IMG/VR virus record: IMGVR_UViG_3300017527_000137
Span: 1 to 42,025 of that record
Strand: one strand, 5' to 3'
DNA from: a virus
DNA: 42,025 nucleotides
Below the pieces are notes generated by a model that did no database searches, was not told the origin of the DNA, and saw only the letters and a list, made by a program, of their open reading frames with translations. A program made the translations under genes and the position numbers. Positions 30,941-39,081 of this stretch are shown in pieces (the stretch's first letter is position 1; each line of letters opens with the position of its first letter).

Positions 30941-31371
30941 AAAAGCAGATTGCAGTGGCAGAGTACACCCCAGTGATCAGGGGCATCATGCCCATTGAAA
31001 ATGCACTGGCCCTGAGAGTGACCACTATCAGCAAGAAGATTGCAGAGCAGATGCCCGATGGCATCTGGCCCTCTGATGATGGGGCATTCTTTAAAAACTT
31101 CACTTTCATTGGCCACACCCCTGCCCTGGATAAATACATCTTCAAGGCTGAAGTGTCTGGGGAGTTCAGGAAGGTGGGCCATCTTGATATGGTGGAGTGG
31201 CTCATTCTGGAAAAGGCTGAGGTGGCCGGGATGCTGTGGGTGGGCAAGGCCAATTACACCCCTGTGGATCACATGGCCCTCATGGCCCCAGCAGAGCAGG
31301 CCAGGCTCAGGGATGAGGCCCAGGATGAGCTGCACAAACTCAAGGCCAGAAACCAGCTGTTTCTCAAATAG
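30937..31371 (+). CDS. hypothetical protein carrying the 41-bp repeat
   Basis: 144 residues, alpha/beta, starting in an ATGA overlap. Residues about 97-109 (AGMLWVGKANYTP) are encoded by a 41-bp stretch identical to one inside the gene at 35414-36091. There it is part of a conserved domain, whereas here it is followed by an unrelated helical tail (APAEQARLRDEAQDELHKLKARNQ). Function unknown. Confidence 0.72.
   Translation: MKKQIAVAEYTPVIRGIMPIENALALRVTTISKKIAEQMPDGIWPSDDGAFFKNFTFIGHTPALDKYIFKAEVSGEFRKVGHLDMVEWLILEKAEVAGMLWVGKANYTPVDHMALMAPAEQARLRDEAQDELHKLKARNQLFLK
31224..31264 (+). repeat. 41-bp exact repeat, copy 1
   Basis: Identical to 35728-35768, in the same orientation and reading frame relation (encoding GMLWVGKANYTP in both proteins). 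It begins GGCCGGGATG and ends TTACACCCCTG. Flanking sequence differs immediately on both sides. Confidence 0.95.
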
Positions 31372-31632: not shown

Positions 31633-32466
31633 ATGGGCAAGCACATGCTGACAGGCATCAAGGGATGTGTGGGAGAAAGCAGGATCTTTCGGGTGGACCC
31701 CAGGATGATCAGGGTGGTTGCTGGGAGAAACCCCAGGAGCTATTTCGATGATGGGGGCATGGAGGATCTCAAGAAGTCCATCATAAAAAACGGGGTCAAG
31801 GTGCCCATCGTTATCAAGAAAAACAAGGACGGTCACCTTGAGCTGATCGACGGTGAGAGAAGGACCAGGGCCTGCATGGCTGCAATCAAGGAGGGGGCCG
31901 ACATCAAAAGTGTGCCTGCCATGGTGGAGAGGCCCACCATCACTGATGCTGAGATGCTGAGGGCCAGCCTGGTCTGCAATGATGGGATGCCCCTCTCTCC
32001 AGTGGATGAGGGCAGGGCATACAAGCGGCTGATGGACTGGGGCCATGGCCAGGCAGAGATAGGTGACATGGTGGGCCGGTCCAATGTCCACATTATCAAC
32101 AGGCTCAAGCTGGTGGACACTGCCCCTGTGGTGGAGGATGCAGTCAACAAAGGTCAGATCCCCATCTCCAAGGCAGTGGACATCGTGGACAAGTCCAATG
32201 GGGATACAGCAGAGCAGCAAAAACAGCTGGACCTGGCCCCCAAAAAAGGCAAGAGAGCCAAGAGGGTGCTGATCAAGTGGGCCGAAAAAAAGAATGAATA
32301 CCGTATCCAGTATGAGGAGAGGGAGGACAAAAAAGAGCAGCTCCTGGCCCTGGTGAATAATCCCAAAGGCCCCTGGAGAAAATTTGAGAAGCAGCTGTCC
32401 GACCTGGGCTATGACTATGGCAGCATCAAGCTCAGGGTGGAGCCCTACAAGGTGCAGGATGACTAG
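31633..32466 (+). CDS. ParB-like partition/CTPase-fold protein
   Basis: 277 residues with the ParB N-terminal domain: NPRSYFDDGGMEDLKKSIIKNGVKVPIVI and the CTP-binding GERRTRA (74-80). A helix-turn-helix follows (GQAEIGDMVGRSNVHIINRLKL, about 139-160), then a basic C-terminal part. ParB proteins clamp onto DNA beside parS sites. No ParA gene is visible in the window, so the role could be partition with a host ParA, gene control, or DNA organisation in infection. It has a strong AAAGGAGGCGAT site. Confidence 0.88.
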   Translation: MGKHMLTGIKGCVGESRIFRVDPRMIRVVAGRNPRSYFDDGGMEDLKKSIIKNGVKVPIVIKKNKDGHLELIDGERRTRACMAAIKEGADIKSVPAMVERPTITDAEMLRASLVCNDGMPLSPVDEGRAYKRLMDWGHGQAEIGDMVGRSNVHIINRLKLVDTAPVVEDAVNKGQIPISKAVDIVDKSNGDTAEQQKQLDLAPKKGKRAKRVLIKWAEKKNEYRIQYEEREDKKEQLLALVNNPKGPWRKFEKQLSDLGYDYGSIKLRVEPYKVQDD

Positions 32467-35413: not shown

Positions 35414-36091
35414 ATGGCTGTAGAAGCAAAGAGAGGCTGTGGCTACAGGAAGGTGGGCAACATCTACCTGTGCATTGATCCAGAGGCCATCAGTTTGCCC
35501 TGTGATCGTCTACCCTATCCACTGGAGACCTGCCACTGCTGTGGGGCAGGGTTTGAATTCTCCAGGGGCTGGAGGTGGTTTCATCCTACCAGCCTGTTCA
35601 AGTGTGACCACCCCCTTGACCCCTTCTGTATGGAGTGTGCCTGTGGGGATCTCCCCATGGTCTGCCCCACCTGTTTTCCCACCCAGATCTTTGGATGCAC
35701 CTCTGACCTGCCTGAAAACCAGACCAGGGCCGGGATGCTGTGGGTGGGCAAGGCCAATTACACCCCTGGAGAATTCACCCAGGAGGCCATCAGGATGGGG
35801 ATCTCCAGGAGAATCCACACCATCCCCAGGGACTTTGTGGTGGGTCAAACATGGGTTTACCTGGCCCACCTGGATGCTGTCAGCACCTATGACAGAACAG
35901 AGCAGGAGGATGCCACAAAGCCAGGCCTGATCATGGCCTATCGGCCCTCCAGGATAGAGATGATTGTCACTGAGACCCAGAGCAATGACGGTGACTTCAT
36001 GGAGGCCCTGGAGGACAGGGGCCTGACCCCTGTGGTGGTGCCCGATGATGACCCTGATCACCAGAAAACAGGGGGCTCAGGAGATGTGTGA
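35414..36091 (+). CDS. conserved phage zinc-binding protein
   Basis: 225 residues of a family I recognise as conserved in phages but without known function: KRGCGYRKVGNIYLC, PCDRLPYPLETCHCCGAGFEFSRGW, two further CxxC-type clusters (CMECACGDLPMVCPTC), then GMLWVGKANYTPGEFTQEA, MGISRRIHTIPRDFVVGQTWVYLAHLDAV. The Cys clusters should bind two zinc ions; the C-terminal half is a separate domain. It contains copy 2 of the 41-bp repeat. AAGGAGGCGGCTC precedes the ATG. Confidence 0.85.
   Translation: MAVEAKRGCGYRKVGNIYLCIDPEAISLPCDRLPYPLETCHCCGAGFEFSRGWRWFHPTSLFKCDHPLDPFCMECACGDLPMVCPTCFPTQIFGCTSDLPENQTRAGMLWVGKANYTPGEFTQEAIRMGISRRIHTIPRDFVVGQTWVYLAHLDAVSTYDRTEQEDATKPGLIMAYRPSRIEMIVTETQSNDGDFMEALEDRGLTPVVVPDDDPDHQKTGGSGDV
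35728..35768 (+). repeat. 41-bp exact repeat, copy 2
   Basis: Identical to 31224-31264. Here the encoded GMLWVGKANYTP belongs to the conserved core of the zinc-protein family, so this copy is probably the source. Confidence 0.95.
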
Positions 36092-36465: not shown

Positions 36466-36515
36466 TTTTTAATTCTGAGGGCCAGCTTATGTTGGCCCTC
36501 ATGGTGAAAAATCAA
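36462..36515 (+). promoter_or_regulatory. two-tier hairpin upstream of the HNH/IS110-like gene
   Basis: Outer arms TTGATTTTT (36462-36470) and AAAAATCAA (36507-36515), and inner arms TGAGGGCCA (36476-36484) and TGGCCCTCA (36493-36501), both perfect 9-bp pairs, enclose 5x5 internal loops and an 8-base apical loop. The ribosome binding site AAAGGAGGTGG begins at the foot of the outer stem. In RNA it could limit access to that site or mark the left edge of a mobile module. Confidence 0.65.
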
Positions 36516-36527
36516 AGGAGGTGGTGA

Positions 36528-37472
36528 ATGGCTAAAGAGGCACTGAAAGAGAAAATGGTGGAGAGGCAAAATGGAGTTGACCCTCTGAGTGGAGAGCCCC
36601 TGGGGGCAGCTCTATCACTTGTGGACACGCACAGGAAAAGGCCCAGGTGTGATGGTGGGGGCTATTCGGATGACAACTACATTGTGACAAACCCTGTGCC
36701 ACACCTGCAGGAGCATGGGGCCTGGGTGGATAGAGACCCTGCCCTGGCTGGTCTCAAGGCTGTGTTTGACTCCAGGCAGGTGATCATCAAGAGAAAGGTG
36801 GCAATGGACAACCAGCTCCTGGCTTTCAAAAGGGGCACTGATGTGATCACCCCAGAGGAAGTGGAGGCCCTGGCAGCAGGATCAACGGCCCTGGCAGCTA
36901 TCAAGGCCAGGAAAGACAAGGAGCTGAGGGGTTTGGTCAAGGCAATGGACAACCCCCATGCCAAGGCCATCATAAGTGTGCCAGCCACAGGGGAGATCAC
37001 TGCTGCAGCCTGCCTGGTCTACCTGGACCCCTACAAGGCAAAGTACCCATCCTCATATGTCAAATATGCAGGCCTGCACTGTGCTGCAAAAGACAGATAC
37101 AGAAAAAATGAGGCTGGTGGGGGCAATAAGAGCCTGAGGTGCATTTTGTGGAATTTTGCCAATTCACAAATCAAGCTGGGAGGCCCCTACAGGGTAGACT
37201 ATGACAGGCAAAAGCTCAGGAGGGCAAACAGCAATAAAATGACCATGACCAACATCACGGGCAAAACAGGAGCCCATGAGAGAAGATGGTCAGAGGTCTC
37301 TGCTGGCCATAGGCATGGGGATGCCCTCAGAAAGGTCATGAAACTGTTTCTGTGCCACCTGTGGCTGGTGCAGAGGGATATTGAGGGCCTGCCCCTGGTG
37401 ACCCCATACCCATTGGACAGGCTGGGGCATAGCACCATCATCTCACCAGAGGACAGGGGGTGGATCTACTGA
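36528..37472 (+). CDS. HNH-like nuclease fused to an IS110-type (Transposase_20-like) domain
   Basis: 314 residues. The N-terminus (VERQNGVDPLSGEPL, LVDTHRKRPRCDGGGYSDDNYIVTNPVPHLQEHG) has the Asp-His...Asn...His order of an HNH/beta-beta-alpha-metal nuclease (D33, H35, N50, H59/H63). A helical region follows. Residues about 145-235 resemble the C-terminal domain of IS110-family transposases (IISVPATGEITAAACLVYLDP, YVKYAGLH, GGGNKSLRCILWNFA). The IS110 N-terminal RuvC-like DEDD domain is absent. The gene is flanked by the two-tier hairpin and, from its stop codon, by the 36-bp periodic array. Perfect AAAGGAGGTGG site. Confidence 0.7.
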   Translation: MAKEALKEKMVERQNGVDPLSGEPLGAALSLVDTHRKRPRCDGGGYSDDNYIVTNPVPHLQEHGAWVDRDPALAGLKAVFDSRQVIIKRKVAMDNQLLAFKRGTDVITPEEVEALAAGSTALAAIKARKDKELRGLVKAMDNPHAKAIISVPATGEITAAACLVYLDPYKAKYPSSYVKYAGLHCAAKDRYRKNEAGGGNKSLRCILWNFANSQIKLGGPYRVDYDRQKLRRANSNKMTMTNITGKTGAHERRWSEVSAGHRHGDALRKVMKLFLCHLWLVQRDIEGLPLVTPYPLDRLGHSTIISPEDRGWIY

Positions 37473-37483
37473 TCAAAACCATT

Positions 37484-37835
37484 AAGAAACCCATGGTTGT
37501 AAAATGAACCAGGCTGACAAAGAAAACCAAGCTGAGAAAATGAGCCATGAGAGATAAGAAGCCCATGGAAATTTAATGAATCACCTGAATGAAGAAACCC
37601 AACCAGTGCAAATGAGCCATATGGATCAAGAAACCCAAATTAGCTGAATGAACCATAAAATATAAGAAGCCCATGGAAAATGAATGAATCATGCAAGGCA
37701 AGCAACCCACTGCCAGTAAATGAACCATTACCTATAAGAAACCCACAGAGGACAAATGAACCATAGCTGCCAAGAAACCCAGAGAAGCTAAATGAACCAC
37801 CAGCACCAAGAAGCCCATCTTGATAGAATGAATTG
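37484..37835 (+). repeat. 36-bp periodic array of alternating 10-bp motifs with 8-bp variable spacers
   Basis: Motif B (AAGAAACCCA) and motif A (AAATGAACCA) alternate, each pair separated by exactly 8 variable bases. B copies start at 37484 and every 36 bases after it (10 copies, last at 37808). A copies start at 37502 and every 36 bases (9 good copies, last at 37790, plus a decayed one at 37826). Motif changes are mostly A/G or C/T at fixed positions; spacers look unrelated. A and B are not complementary, so no hairpins form. The array begins 11 bases after the HNH/IS110-like stop and fills the gap to the next gene. Confidence 0.9.
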
Positions 37836-37847
37836 AGGGCCAATAAC

Positions 37848-38060
37848 ATGCCAAAAATAATGAGGCCACCACCACAAAAGAGTGACAGAACCTGTTTCCA
37901 TGACATCCACCAAAAATGCCGCTTTTTTTGTGACAACCCCCAGGACGTATCCATAGAACCAGGCCCCAGGGACAGCTGGATGTATTGCAGGAAAAAAGAG
38001 AGATACTTTCCCATGACAATCAAGGTGGGATCATTTACTTGTAGCGAATGGACATGGTGA
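37848..38060 (+). CDS. small Cys-rich protein
   Basis: 70 residues from the ATG at 37848, directly after the periodic array, with GAGGG 8 bases upstream. Four spaced cysteines (TCFHDIHQKCRFFCDN, WMYCRKKERYF, FTCSEW) and a basic N-terminus (MPKIMRPPPQKSDR) suggest a zinc-binding, possibly nucleic-acid-binding protein. It stands between the array and the replication initiator gene. No family recognised. Confidence 0.65.
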   Translation: MPKIMRPPPQKSDRTCFHDIHQKCRFFCDNPQDVSIEPGPRDSWMYCRKKERYFPMTIKVGSFTCSEWTW

Positions 38061-38064
38061 GAAA

Positions 38065-39081
38065 ATGGATGCAAAAAAAGGCAAAAACATGAGGCCCCCA
38101 TCATTCCCTTTCTATGTCAAAGACTACCTGGGAGACACTGAGCTGAGGAGGTGCCACAGGTCCACCAGGGGCATCTGGATGGACCTGCTCTGCTTTATGT
38201 GGGAGGCCGATGACCAGGGCAGGCTGGATGACACACCAGAGGGTTTGGCCTCACTGAGTGGGGCTCCTCCAGATGAGATGGTGCTTTTTTTCAGAGATGC
38301 CCTGGCAACGGGGTTTTGTAAAATTGATGAAAAATTTGCTGATTTTTTCGAGAATTCCTACAGAAAAACCCACAGAAAATCCACAGACTGGTCACACCTC
38401 TGCCAGGAGGTCTGGTCACAGCTCTGTCACACCCCTGTCACGGTGGTCAATAGGAGGATGTTTAGAGGGGCTAAACGACGTTTATCACAGAGAGAAAGGC
38501 AAAGGAGGTCCAGGATGAGCAAGCGGGTGGCACCCGTTTGTCACACCTCTGTCACACCCCCTGATAAAAAACCTGTCACACCAGATGTCACGCCCAATGT
38601 CACAGCTTTGTCACACCCAAAAAACACCCCCCCTGCTTTTGCTTCTGCTTCTGCAGTACATGTTAATGATAAATCATTAACCCCAGAGACTGGCCAGGGG
38701 CCAGCTCAGGGGTCTGCTTCTCAAGTGAGATTTGACTTGAGAGCTGACATGGCCAGCCATGTGGATGAGCTGGTGGATCTGGCCAATGAGGCTCAGTCAA
38801 GACCCCATACCTCAGGTAGGCAGTTTCGATCCTTTGCCTGGATTCAAGACATGACCAATAAGGGCAAACACCCTGCAGCTCAAATCTATGCACTCCAGTC
38901 CACTTTAGACAACTGGGGTGATATTGACATACCATGGGCATGGGCCACAAAGGTGGTTAAATCAACAGACGGTAGATTTAAGGGGGATGAATTAAAAAAA
39001 CAGGCACAAAACTTTAAAAAGACTGTCTGGCCAGAAAAGCTCAAAGAGCTGGCAAAAAATGTGGGGAGGGATATATTGTGA
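38065..39081 (+). CDS. phage replication initiator (lambda O/DUF1376-like)
   Basis: 338 residues. The N-terminal winged-helix part (SFPFYVKDYLGDTELRRCHRSTRGIWMDLLCFMWEADDQGRLDD) is typical of phage origin-binding proteins. The middle (about 105-215) is a basic, disordered linker whose codons contain ten TGTCACACC-type iterons and an AT-rich palindrome, as in lambda, where the origin lies inside O. The C-terminal part (FRSFAWIQDMTNKGKHPAAQIYALQSTLDNW) would recruit a helicase loader or host helicase. No phage polymerase or helicase is visible. The start could also be the ATG at 38089. Confidence 0.8.
   Translation: MDAKKGKNMRPPSFPFYVKDYLGDTELRRCHRSTRGIWMDLLCFMWEADDQGRLDDTPEGLASLSGAPPDEMVLFFRDALATGFCKIDEKFADFFENSYRKTHRKSTDWSHLCQEVWSQLCHTPVTVVNRRMFRGAKRRLSQRERQRRSRMSKRVAPVCHTSVTPPDKKPVTPDVTPNVTALSHPKNTPPAFASASAVHVNDKSLTPETGQGPAQGSASQVRFDLRADMASHVDELVDLANEAQSRPHTSGRQFRSFAWIQDMTNKGKHPAAQIYALQSTLDNWGDIDIPWAWATKVVKSTDGRFKGDELKKQAQNFKKTVWPEKLKELAKNVGRDIL
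38390..38681 (+). other. predicted replication origin: phased iterons and AT-rich palindrome
   Basis: TGTCACACC-like 9-mers start at 38390, 38414, 38425, 38436, 38539, 38550, 38574, 38586, 38598 and 38609. Within each cluster the steps are 11, 12 or 24 bases, that is one or two helical turns, so the sites face one side of the DNA. Downstream an inverted repeat, GTTAATGAT (38662-38670) and ATCATTAAC (38673-38681), gives an easily melted element. All lie within the linker region of the initiator gene. Confidence 0.72.

What the first reader, a model, noticed from the sequence alone, without database searches (positions are those of the whole stretch)
37484..37835. Strict 36-bp array: two alternating 10-bp motifs, each followed by an 8-bp variable spacer
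About ten units keep exact spacing with no indels while all spacers differ, so spacing is under selection or the array is made by a precise process. It starts at the stop of an HNH/IS110-like gene and ends at a small Cys-rich gene. It lacks CRISPR-like palindromes and long spacers. Possibilities: a multi-site binding array for a phage protein (centromere-like, as with short direct repeats bound by plasmid partition proteins); a non-coding RNA with serial short guides linked to the IS110-like protein; or an auxiliary origin. None can be decided from sequence alone.
Basis: partly seen in the sequence, partly recalled or inferred. Interest (0 to 1): 0.87.

Follow-up and report, generated by a model that had tools for sequence, protein, structure and literature searches.

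The report
Phage TIGR guide array with TasH
This strict 36-base repeat is a TIGR array, a string of ten two-part RNA guides that sits directly behind the gene for its RNA-guided DNA-cutting protein (TasH) in an uncharacterised tailed phage: a new member of a system first described in 2025.

Summary
The gene at 36528-37472 encodes TasH (HNH nuclease fused to a Nop domain). It matches the solved TasH of Salicola phage CGphi29 over almost its full length (40% identity; phmmer E 2e-58), and its AlphaFold model finds the TasH-tigRNA-DNA cryo-EM structures first. The array (37470-37835) meets nearly every sequence-level criterion published for a dual-repeat TIGR array: alternating 10-nt edge (NAATGAACCA) and loop (AAGAAACCCA) repeats, 8-nt spacers, 36-nt units, box C 'CCA' in both repeats, a 5'-truncated edge overlapping the tasH stop codon and a 3'-truncated edge at the end. 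It encodes ten predicted tigRNAs. Of 59 Tas relatives found in viral contigs, nearly all carry an adjacent array with a 34-37-nt period, and the edge-repeat pair covaries (C-G or T-A). The protein is TasH, not an IS110 transposase. No natural target was found. Two minor points: no terminator follows the array, and two units look like a block duplication. New member of a known kind; low-to-moderate interest.

The parts
36528..37472 (+). tasH: TIGR-associated HNH-Nop RNA-guided endonuclease, 314 aa (HNH about aa 15-64, coiled coil aa 71-139, Nop/RNA-binding region aa 140-312)
   Evidence: phmmer vs PDB TasH 21kl_A E 2.2e-58, residues 12-313; family profile vs TasH E 1.8e-151; AlphaFold pLDDT 89.9, best PDB match 9w04 TasH-tigRNA-dsDNA TM 0.83; NCBIfam TIGR_Tas_endo 98.5 bits, cut-off 100
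37470..37475 (+). 5'-truncated edge repeat (TGATCA), overlapping the tasH stop codon
   Evidence: register of the array; many relatives likewise show a TCA or CCA end 8 nt before their first loop repeat; typical of TIGR arrays (PMC12045711)
37476..37511 (+). TIGR unit 1: A AAACCATT, loop AAGAAACCCA, B TGGTTGTA, edge AAATGAACCA
37512..37547 (+). TIGR unit 2: A GGCTGACA, loop AAGAAAACCA, B AGCTGAGA, edge AAATGAGCCA
37548..37583 (+). TIGR unit 3: A TGAGAGAT, loop AAGAAGCCCA, B TGGAAATT, edge TAATGAATCA
37584..37619 (+). TIGR unit 4: A CCTGAATG, loop AAGAAACCCA, B ACCAGTGC, edge AAATGAGCCA
37620..37655 (+). TIGR unit 5: A TATGGATC, loop AAGAAACCCA, B AATTAGCT, edge GAATGAACCA
37656..37691 (+). TIGR unit 6: A TAAAATAT, loop AAGAAGCCCA, B TGGAAAAT, edge GAATGAATCA (loop-B-edge block 26/28 identical to that of unit 3)
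37692..37727 (+). TIGR unit 7: A TGCAAGGC, loop AAGCAACCCA, B CTGCCAGT, edge AAATGAACCA
37728..37763 (+). TIGR unit 8: A TTACCTAT, loop AAGAAACCCA, B CAGAGGAC, edge AAATGAACCA
37764..37799 (+). TIGR unit 9: A TAGCTGCC, loop AAGAAACCCA, B GAGAAGCT, edge AAATGAACCA
37800..37835 (+). TIGR unit 10: A CCAGCACC, loop AAGAAGCCCA, B TCTTGATA, then the 3'-truncated edge GAATGAA (37826-37832)
   Evidence: 3'-truncated edges are typical of TIGR arrays (PMC12045711)

Best explanation
The locus is a phage TIGR-TasH system. tasH and the array read in the same direction. The array is probably transcribed as a precursor, most simply together with tasH because no gap separates them (inferred). By analogy with SpTIGR, the precursor is cut within each edge repeat, probably by a host RNase assisted by TasH, into ten 36-nt tigRNAs of the form half-edge / 8-nt spacer A / loop / 8-nt spacer B / half-edge (inferred). 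A TasH dimer holds the edge and loop repeats through their box D/box C ends. Spacers A and B then pair with opposite strands of adjacent 8-bp stretches of a DNA target, and the two HNH domains cut both strands without a PAM. That mechanism was shown for the 40%-identical SpTasH in PMC12045711 and is inferred here. The likely use is competition with, or exclusion of, other mobile elements in the phage's host. The actual targets are unknown.
For: Protein: full-length match to solved TasH; AlphaFold model with TasH-tigRNA-DNA structures as the first nine PDB hits, then TasR, then IS621/ISCro4; NCBIfam TIGR_Tas_endo 98.5 bits; conserved HNH-region residues D33, R36, G43-G44, Y46, N50, H59 and H63 across 20 TasH. 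Array: 10-8-10-8 grammar, 36-nt unit, CCA ends, truncated edge at both ends, identical in layout to the SpTIGR array of Salicola phage CGphi29. Association: 59 Tas relatives in viral contigs, nearly all with an adjacent short-period array, mostly 36 nt. Edge repeat positions 4/7 are C-G in 36 of 49 arrays and T-A in 12 (two near-duplicate contig pairs included), never mainly C-A or T-G, which is the kind of covariation described in PMC12045711. Naked array RNA does not fold beyond chance (z 0.06), as expected for dual-repeat TIGR arrays.
Against: Expression, processing to 36 nt and cleavage have not been shown for this locus. No rho-independent terminator follows the array, unlike typical TIGR arrays. 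The NCBIfam score is 1.5 bits below its curated cut-off. No convincing natural target was found in its own genome or in about 1-2 Mb of other phage DNA. The edge repeat lacks the G at position 3 seen in most relatives (AAT.. instead of AAG..).
Confidence: 0.96

Rival explanations
1. The array is a multi-site DNA-binding region (a partition/centromere site for the phage ParB-like protein at 31633, or an auxiliary origin) in which only the 10-bp motifs matter and the spacers are filler.
For: A ParB-domain protein is encoded in the window (Pfam ParB_N E 1.8e-13), and regular short repeats are typical of such sites.
Against: 18- and 36-bp periods are not whole helical turns. Arrays recur beside tas genes in dozens of phages, and the window's ParB and Cys-rich genes do not. 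The motifs covary as RNA pairs, and the same layout is a proven guide array in SpTIGR (PMC12045711).
Confidence: 0.02
2. An IS110-type transposon whose bridge RNA has been multiplied: the protein is a transposase and the array a set of bridge-RNA loops.
For: Pfam Transposase_20 (E 0.0016) and PHROG 'transposase' labels; IS621 and ISCro4 appear among structural neighbours.
Against: There is an N-terminal HNH domain in place of the DEDD RuvC domain. TasH is far closer than IS621 (E 2e-151 vs 1e-3; TM 0.83 vs 0.44). The IS110 NCBIfam score is 17.9 against a cut-off of 140.
Confidence: 0.01
3. A decayed or inactive TIGR-TasH remnant: array and protein are recognisable but no longer functional.
For: No target was found. 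There is no terminator, and some repeat copies deviate (AAGAAAACCA, AAGCAACCCA, edge AATCA).
Against: The TasH frame is intact with its HNH residues conserved and a strong ribosome-binding site (AAAGGAGGTGG). There are no indels in ten units, and wobble changes (TGAG for TGAA) keep the edge pair.
Confidence: 0.05

Closest known systems
SpTIGR-TasH of Salicola phage CGphi29 (HQ634153 / NC_020844), Faure et al. 2025, PMC12045711
   Same: HNH-Nop protein of about 310 aa followed downstream by a dual-repeat array; 10-nt repeats, 8-nt spacers, 36-nt unit; both repeats end in CCA; 5'- and 3'-truncated edges; tailed phage of about 41 kb.
   Different: TasH only 40% identical; edge AAGCGAGCCA (C-G pair) against NAATGAACCA (T-A pair) here; loop AAGACAACCA against AAGAAACCCA; the CGphi29 array runs into a terminator-like hairpin with a T-run, this one does not.
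TIGR-TasR (RuvC; PDB 9mty) and TIGR-TasA systems, PMC12045711
   Same: Nop-domain protein, 36-nt tigRNA units, CCA box C, dual spacers.
   Different: Other or no nuclease domain; 9-nt spacers in the characterised examples; box D 'UG' at the start of the TasR repeats (here AA).
IS110-family transposases with bridge RNA (IS621, ISCro4)
   Same: Homologous Nop-like/Transposase_20 RNA-binding region.
   Different: DEDD recombinase, single bridge RNA with two loops, no array; no HNH domain.
CRISPR arrays
   Same: Repeats separated by variable guide sequences.
   Different: One long repeat and long spacers in CRISPR; here two alternating 10-nt repeats and 8-nt spacers acting in pairs; no Cas genes found among the scanned neighbours.

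Membership tests
TIGR-Tas (dual-repeat type), TasH branch | Tas protein with a Nop domain homologous to known Tas | tested here: met
   E 2.2e-58 to solved TasH; profile E 1.8e-151 to TasH and 5.5e-23 to TasR; Foldseek; NCBIfam TIGR_Tas_endo E 5e-28, 98.5 bits, just under the 100-bit cut-off
TIGR-Tas (dual-repeat type), TasH branch | N-terminal HNH nuclease with conserved residues | tested here: met
   Alignment of 20 TasH: D33, R36, G44, N50 invariant; H59, H63 at least 90%; full-length structural match to TasH including the N-terminal domain (9w04)
TIGR-Tas (dual-repeat type), TasH branch | Adjacent array of two alternating 8-12-nt repeats with short spacers, most often 5-15 units | tested here: met
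   10-8-10-8, ten units, directly downstream of tasH
TIGR-Tas (dual-repeat type), TasH branch | Box C (CCA) at the 3' end of both repeats and matching box D at the 5' end | tested here: met
   CCA in all loop copies and in 7 of 9 full edge copies, TCA in the other two. Box D is not the TasR-type UG but AA in both repeats, so it matches between them; divergence of this kind is described in PMC12045711
TIGR-Tas (dual-repeat type), TasH branch | Covarying inner base pair of the edge repeat | tested here: met
   T-A (or T-G wobble) here; C-G or T-A in the relatives, no mainly mismatched locus
[quoted passage not shown]
   TGATCA at 37470-37475; GAATGAA at 37826-37832
TIGR-Tas (dual-repeat type), TasH branch | Rho-independent terminator after the array (typical, not obligatory) | tested here: not met
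   No terminator-like site downstream on the + strand; several relatives show none in the first 30 nt after the array either
TIGR-Tas (dual-repeat type), TasH branch | Processing into 36-nt tigRNAs and tandem-spacer DNA cleavage | not testable with these tools
   Needs small-RNA sequencing and a cleavage assay
IS110-family transposase | N-terminal DEDD RuvC-like domain and IS110 family score | tested here: not met
   HNH in its place; NCBIfam IS110 17.9 bits against a cut-off of 140
ParB/parS-type partition site | Array associated with the partition gene across relatives | tested here: not met
   The window's ParB-like gene has no homologue in the Tas loci; arrays follow tas
CRISPR array | Single repeat of about 25-36 nt with spacers of similar size, cas genes | tested here: not met
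   Two 10-nt repeats and 8-nt spacers; no cas genes among the scanned neighbours

The most novel reading that the evidence does not exclude
TIGR arrays grow and change without an acquisition machinery: short internal blocks (loop-spacer B-edge) are copied and the spacers then drift by point mutation. Here units 3 and 6 share a 28-nt block at 26/28 with the same repeat variants, and two close rumen phages (L047/L048) share a 98%-identical TasA region while their spacers are about half diverged between fixed repeats.
Probability: 0.3. Interest if true: 0.5.

Novelty: new member of a known kind. Interest (0 to 1): 0.3.

Why it matters
TIGR-Tas was described only in 2025, with one characterised TasH. 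This locus adds a clean, compact second phage TasH system (40% identity) and, through the scan, about twenty TasH loci with arrays. These allow tests of repeat/protein co-evolution, array turnover and natural targets, which the discoverers list as open. It also shows that the motif grammar alone (18-nt alternation, CCA ends) can point to TIGR arrays in raw sequence.

Tried and rejected
Self-targeting: best A + rc(B) matches in the window are 12-13 of 16, no better than re-paired controls. Targets of 353 unit pairs from 43 arrays in 1.19 Mb of phage loci: 2 exact hits, one homologous site in two related loci (L066, L067), against about 0.6 expected; near-matches equal the control arrangements (45 against 39-49). 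A scan of viral contigs for unit 7 as A-N0-2-rc(B) gave 80 hits (listing cap) and the A-N0-2-B control 44; both are plausibly chance and composition, and no hit locus carried an exact match to another unit. TasH in 84,980 bacterial and archaeal genomes: no relative confirmed by the pattern scan, so no host or provirus was identified. The portal protein found no viral relatives; the terminase found 68 relatives, best 58%, none naming the host clearly. Rfam: nothing relevant. PADLOC: nothing. Coding reading of the array: stops in all six frames; the longest overlapping minus-strand ORFs (37640-38104, 37573-37728) are 12-residue repeats, as expected from the DNA period.

Full report
Check of the observation. 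The 36-nt array is real. Ten loop-type motifs AAGAAACCCA stand exactly 36 nt apart from 37484 to 37817, and a second motif NAATGAACCA lies midway between them; each is followed by 8 variable bases. Lag-36 identity is 0.64 over 144 nt, against 0.46 for the best shuffled genome and for the rest of the genome at any lag from 20 to 119. The region is not coding in any frame, and its RNA does not fold better than shuffles (z 0.06).

The neighbouring protein. The 314-aa product of 36528-37472 matches one solved protein over residues 12-313: TasH (PDB 21kl and seven more entries, E 2.2e-58). The second hit is 9mty, TIGR-TasR. A profile of 20 relatives gives TasH 1.8e-151, TasR 5.5e-23, IS621 1.2e-3 and ISCro4 9e-3. 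An AlphaFold model (pLDDT 89.9) finds nine TasH chains first (TM 0.65-0.83), then TasR, then IS621/ISCro4. NCBIfam's TIGR_Tas_endo scores 98.5 bits, just under its 100-bit cut-off, while IS110 scores 17.9 against 140. Pfam and PHROG labels of 'transposase' reflect the shared Nop-like region. The HNH region is conserved: D33, R36, G44 and N50 are invariant, and G43, Y46, H59 and H63 are nearly so.

What a TIGR array is. Faure et al. 2025 (PMC12045711; [quoted passage not shown] The repeats are 8-12 nt and the spacers about 9 nt (8 in SpTIGR). [quoted passage not shown] TasR and TasH then cut both strands without a PAM. Box C is CCA in both repeats, box D matches between the repeats, and the TasR edge repeat holds a covarying inner pair.

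Test here. Read in that register, the window holds a truncated edge TGATCA that overlaps the tasH stop (37470-37475). Ten units follow at 37476 + 36n, ending in a truncated edge GAATGAA (37826-37832). Both repeats start with AA (after one variable base in the edge) and end with CCA (two edge copies end in TCA). The prototype SpTIGR array of Salicola phage CGphi29 has the same 10-8-10-8 layout with AAGCGAGCCA / AAGACAACCA. A scan of viral contigs with a Tas alignment gave 59 relatives, about 20 of them TasH at 37-43% identity. Nearly all have an array with a 34-37-nt period, mostly 36, next to the gene. Across 49 arrays the fourth and seventh bases of the edge repeat are mainly C-G (36) or T-A (12, including two near-duplicate contigs), never mainly C-A or T-G. 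The scan pattern allowed all four combinations, so the covariation is not built in. The window uses T-A, with T-G wobble in two copies. One published feature is missing: a terminator after the array. Several relatives also show none directly after the array.

Do spacers change while motifs stay? Yes. Among 353 units from 43 arrays there are 679 distinct spacers. In the close pair L047/L048 (TasA region 97.7% identical) corresponding units keep their repeats while spacers are about half diverged and unit numbers differ. Do neighbouring genes travel with the array? No: the ParB, Cys-rich and pre-tasH genes have no homologue in the Tas loci, and the 38065 gene has only one weak match. The array belongs to tasH.

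Mechanism. Shown here by sequence: a TasH protein of the cleaving type and a complete guide array. Shown for the relative SpTasH in the literature: 36-nt tigRNAs and tandem-spacer, HNH-dependent cleavage of target DNA. Inferred here: the same processing and targeting, co-transcription with tasH, and a use against competing mobile elements. From the published 8-nt 3' overhangs I infer that the target's top strand reads spacer A followed by the reverse complement of spacer B; the opposite order was searched as well. Neither gave a self-target or a significant target elsewhere. The paper also reports that natural targets are hard to identify.

Array growth. Units 3 and 6 share a 28-nt loop-B-edge block at 26/28, including the same uncommon repeat variants (AAGAAGCCCA, NAATGAATCA). 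Together with L047/L048 this suggests duplication and point drift rather than CRISPR-like acquisition. Two cases do not prove it.

Verdict. The array is a new member of TIGR-TasH, not a new kind. Confidence is 0.96 for the identity, lower for the function in the phage's life.

Noticed in passing
window 31224-31264 and 35728-35768: An exact 41-bp direct repeat 4504 bp apart, lying in the same frame inside two different ORFs (shared peptide AGMLWVGKANYTP); perhaps a recent duplication or recombination point.
   Followed up: partly
window 37556-37583 and 37664-37691: A 28-nt block (loop, spacer B, edge) of TIGR units 3 and 6 is 26/28 identical and shares uncommon repeat variants, which looks like duplication within the array.
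   Followed up: partly
window 36476-36501: A strong hairpin (TGAGGGCCA...TGGCCCTCA) between the previous gene and tasH, just before its ribosome-binding site, without a T-run; the string TGAGGGCCA recurs at the end of the array (37834-37842).
   Followed up: no
L047 and L048 (viral contigs): Near-identical TasA genes followed by arrays with conserved repeats but diverged spacers and unequal unit numbers; L048 also carries extra DNA between tasA and its array.
   Followed up: partly
L018 2980-3933: A TasH relative whose HNH-region residues are lost (RMKKQG in place of HMxxHG, DANR in place of DTDR), a natural candidate for an inactive nuclease with an intact array.
   Followed up: no
L031, L035 (34 nt), L056-L058 and L061-L063 (35 nt), L059/L060 (37 nt): Tas-linked arrays whose unit is 34, 35 or 37 nt instead of 36, with different repeats (e.g. 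GATGTAGCA / GAGCGAGCCA).
   Followed up: no
L004 (Microcystis phage Mvi-JY20): A Tas-like gene annotated only as hypothetical, without HNH, followed by a TIGR-like array (ACGAAACCC / ATGCGAGCC) and a terminator-like hairpin, in a named cyanophage.
   Followed up: partly
L066 2318 and L067 275: Exact 16-nt A + rc(B) match (gap 0) of one unit of the L016 array in two related phage loci; about 0.6 such hits expected by chance, so only a lead.
   Followed up: partly
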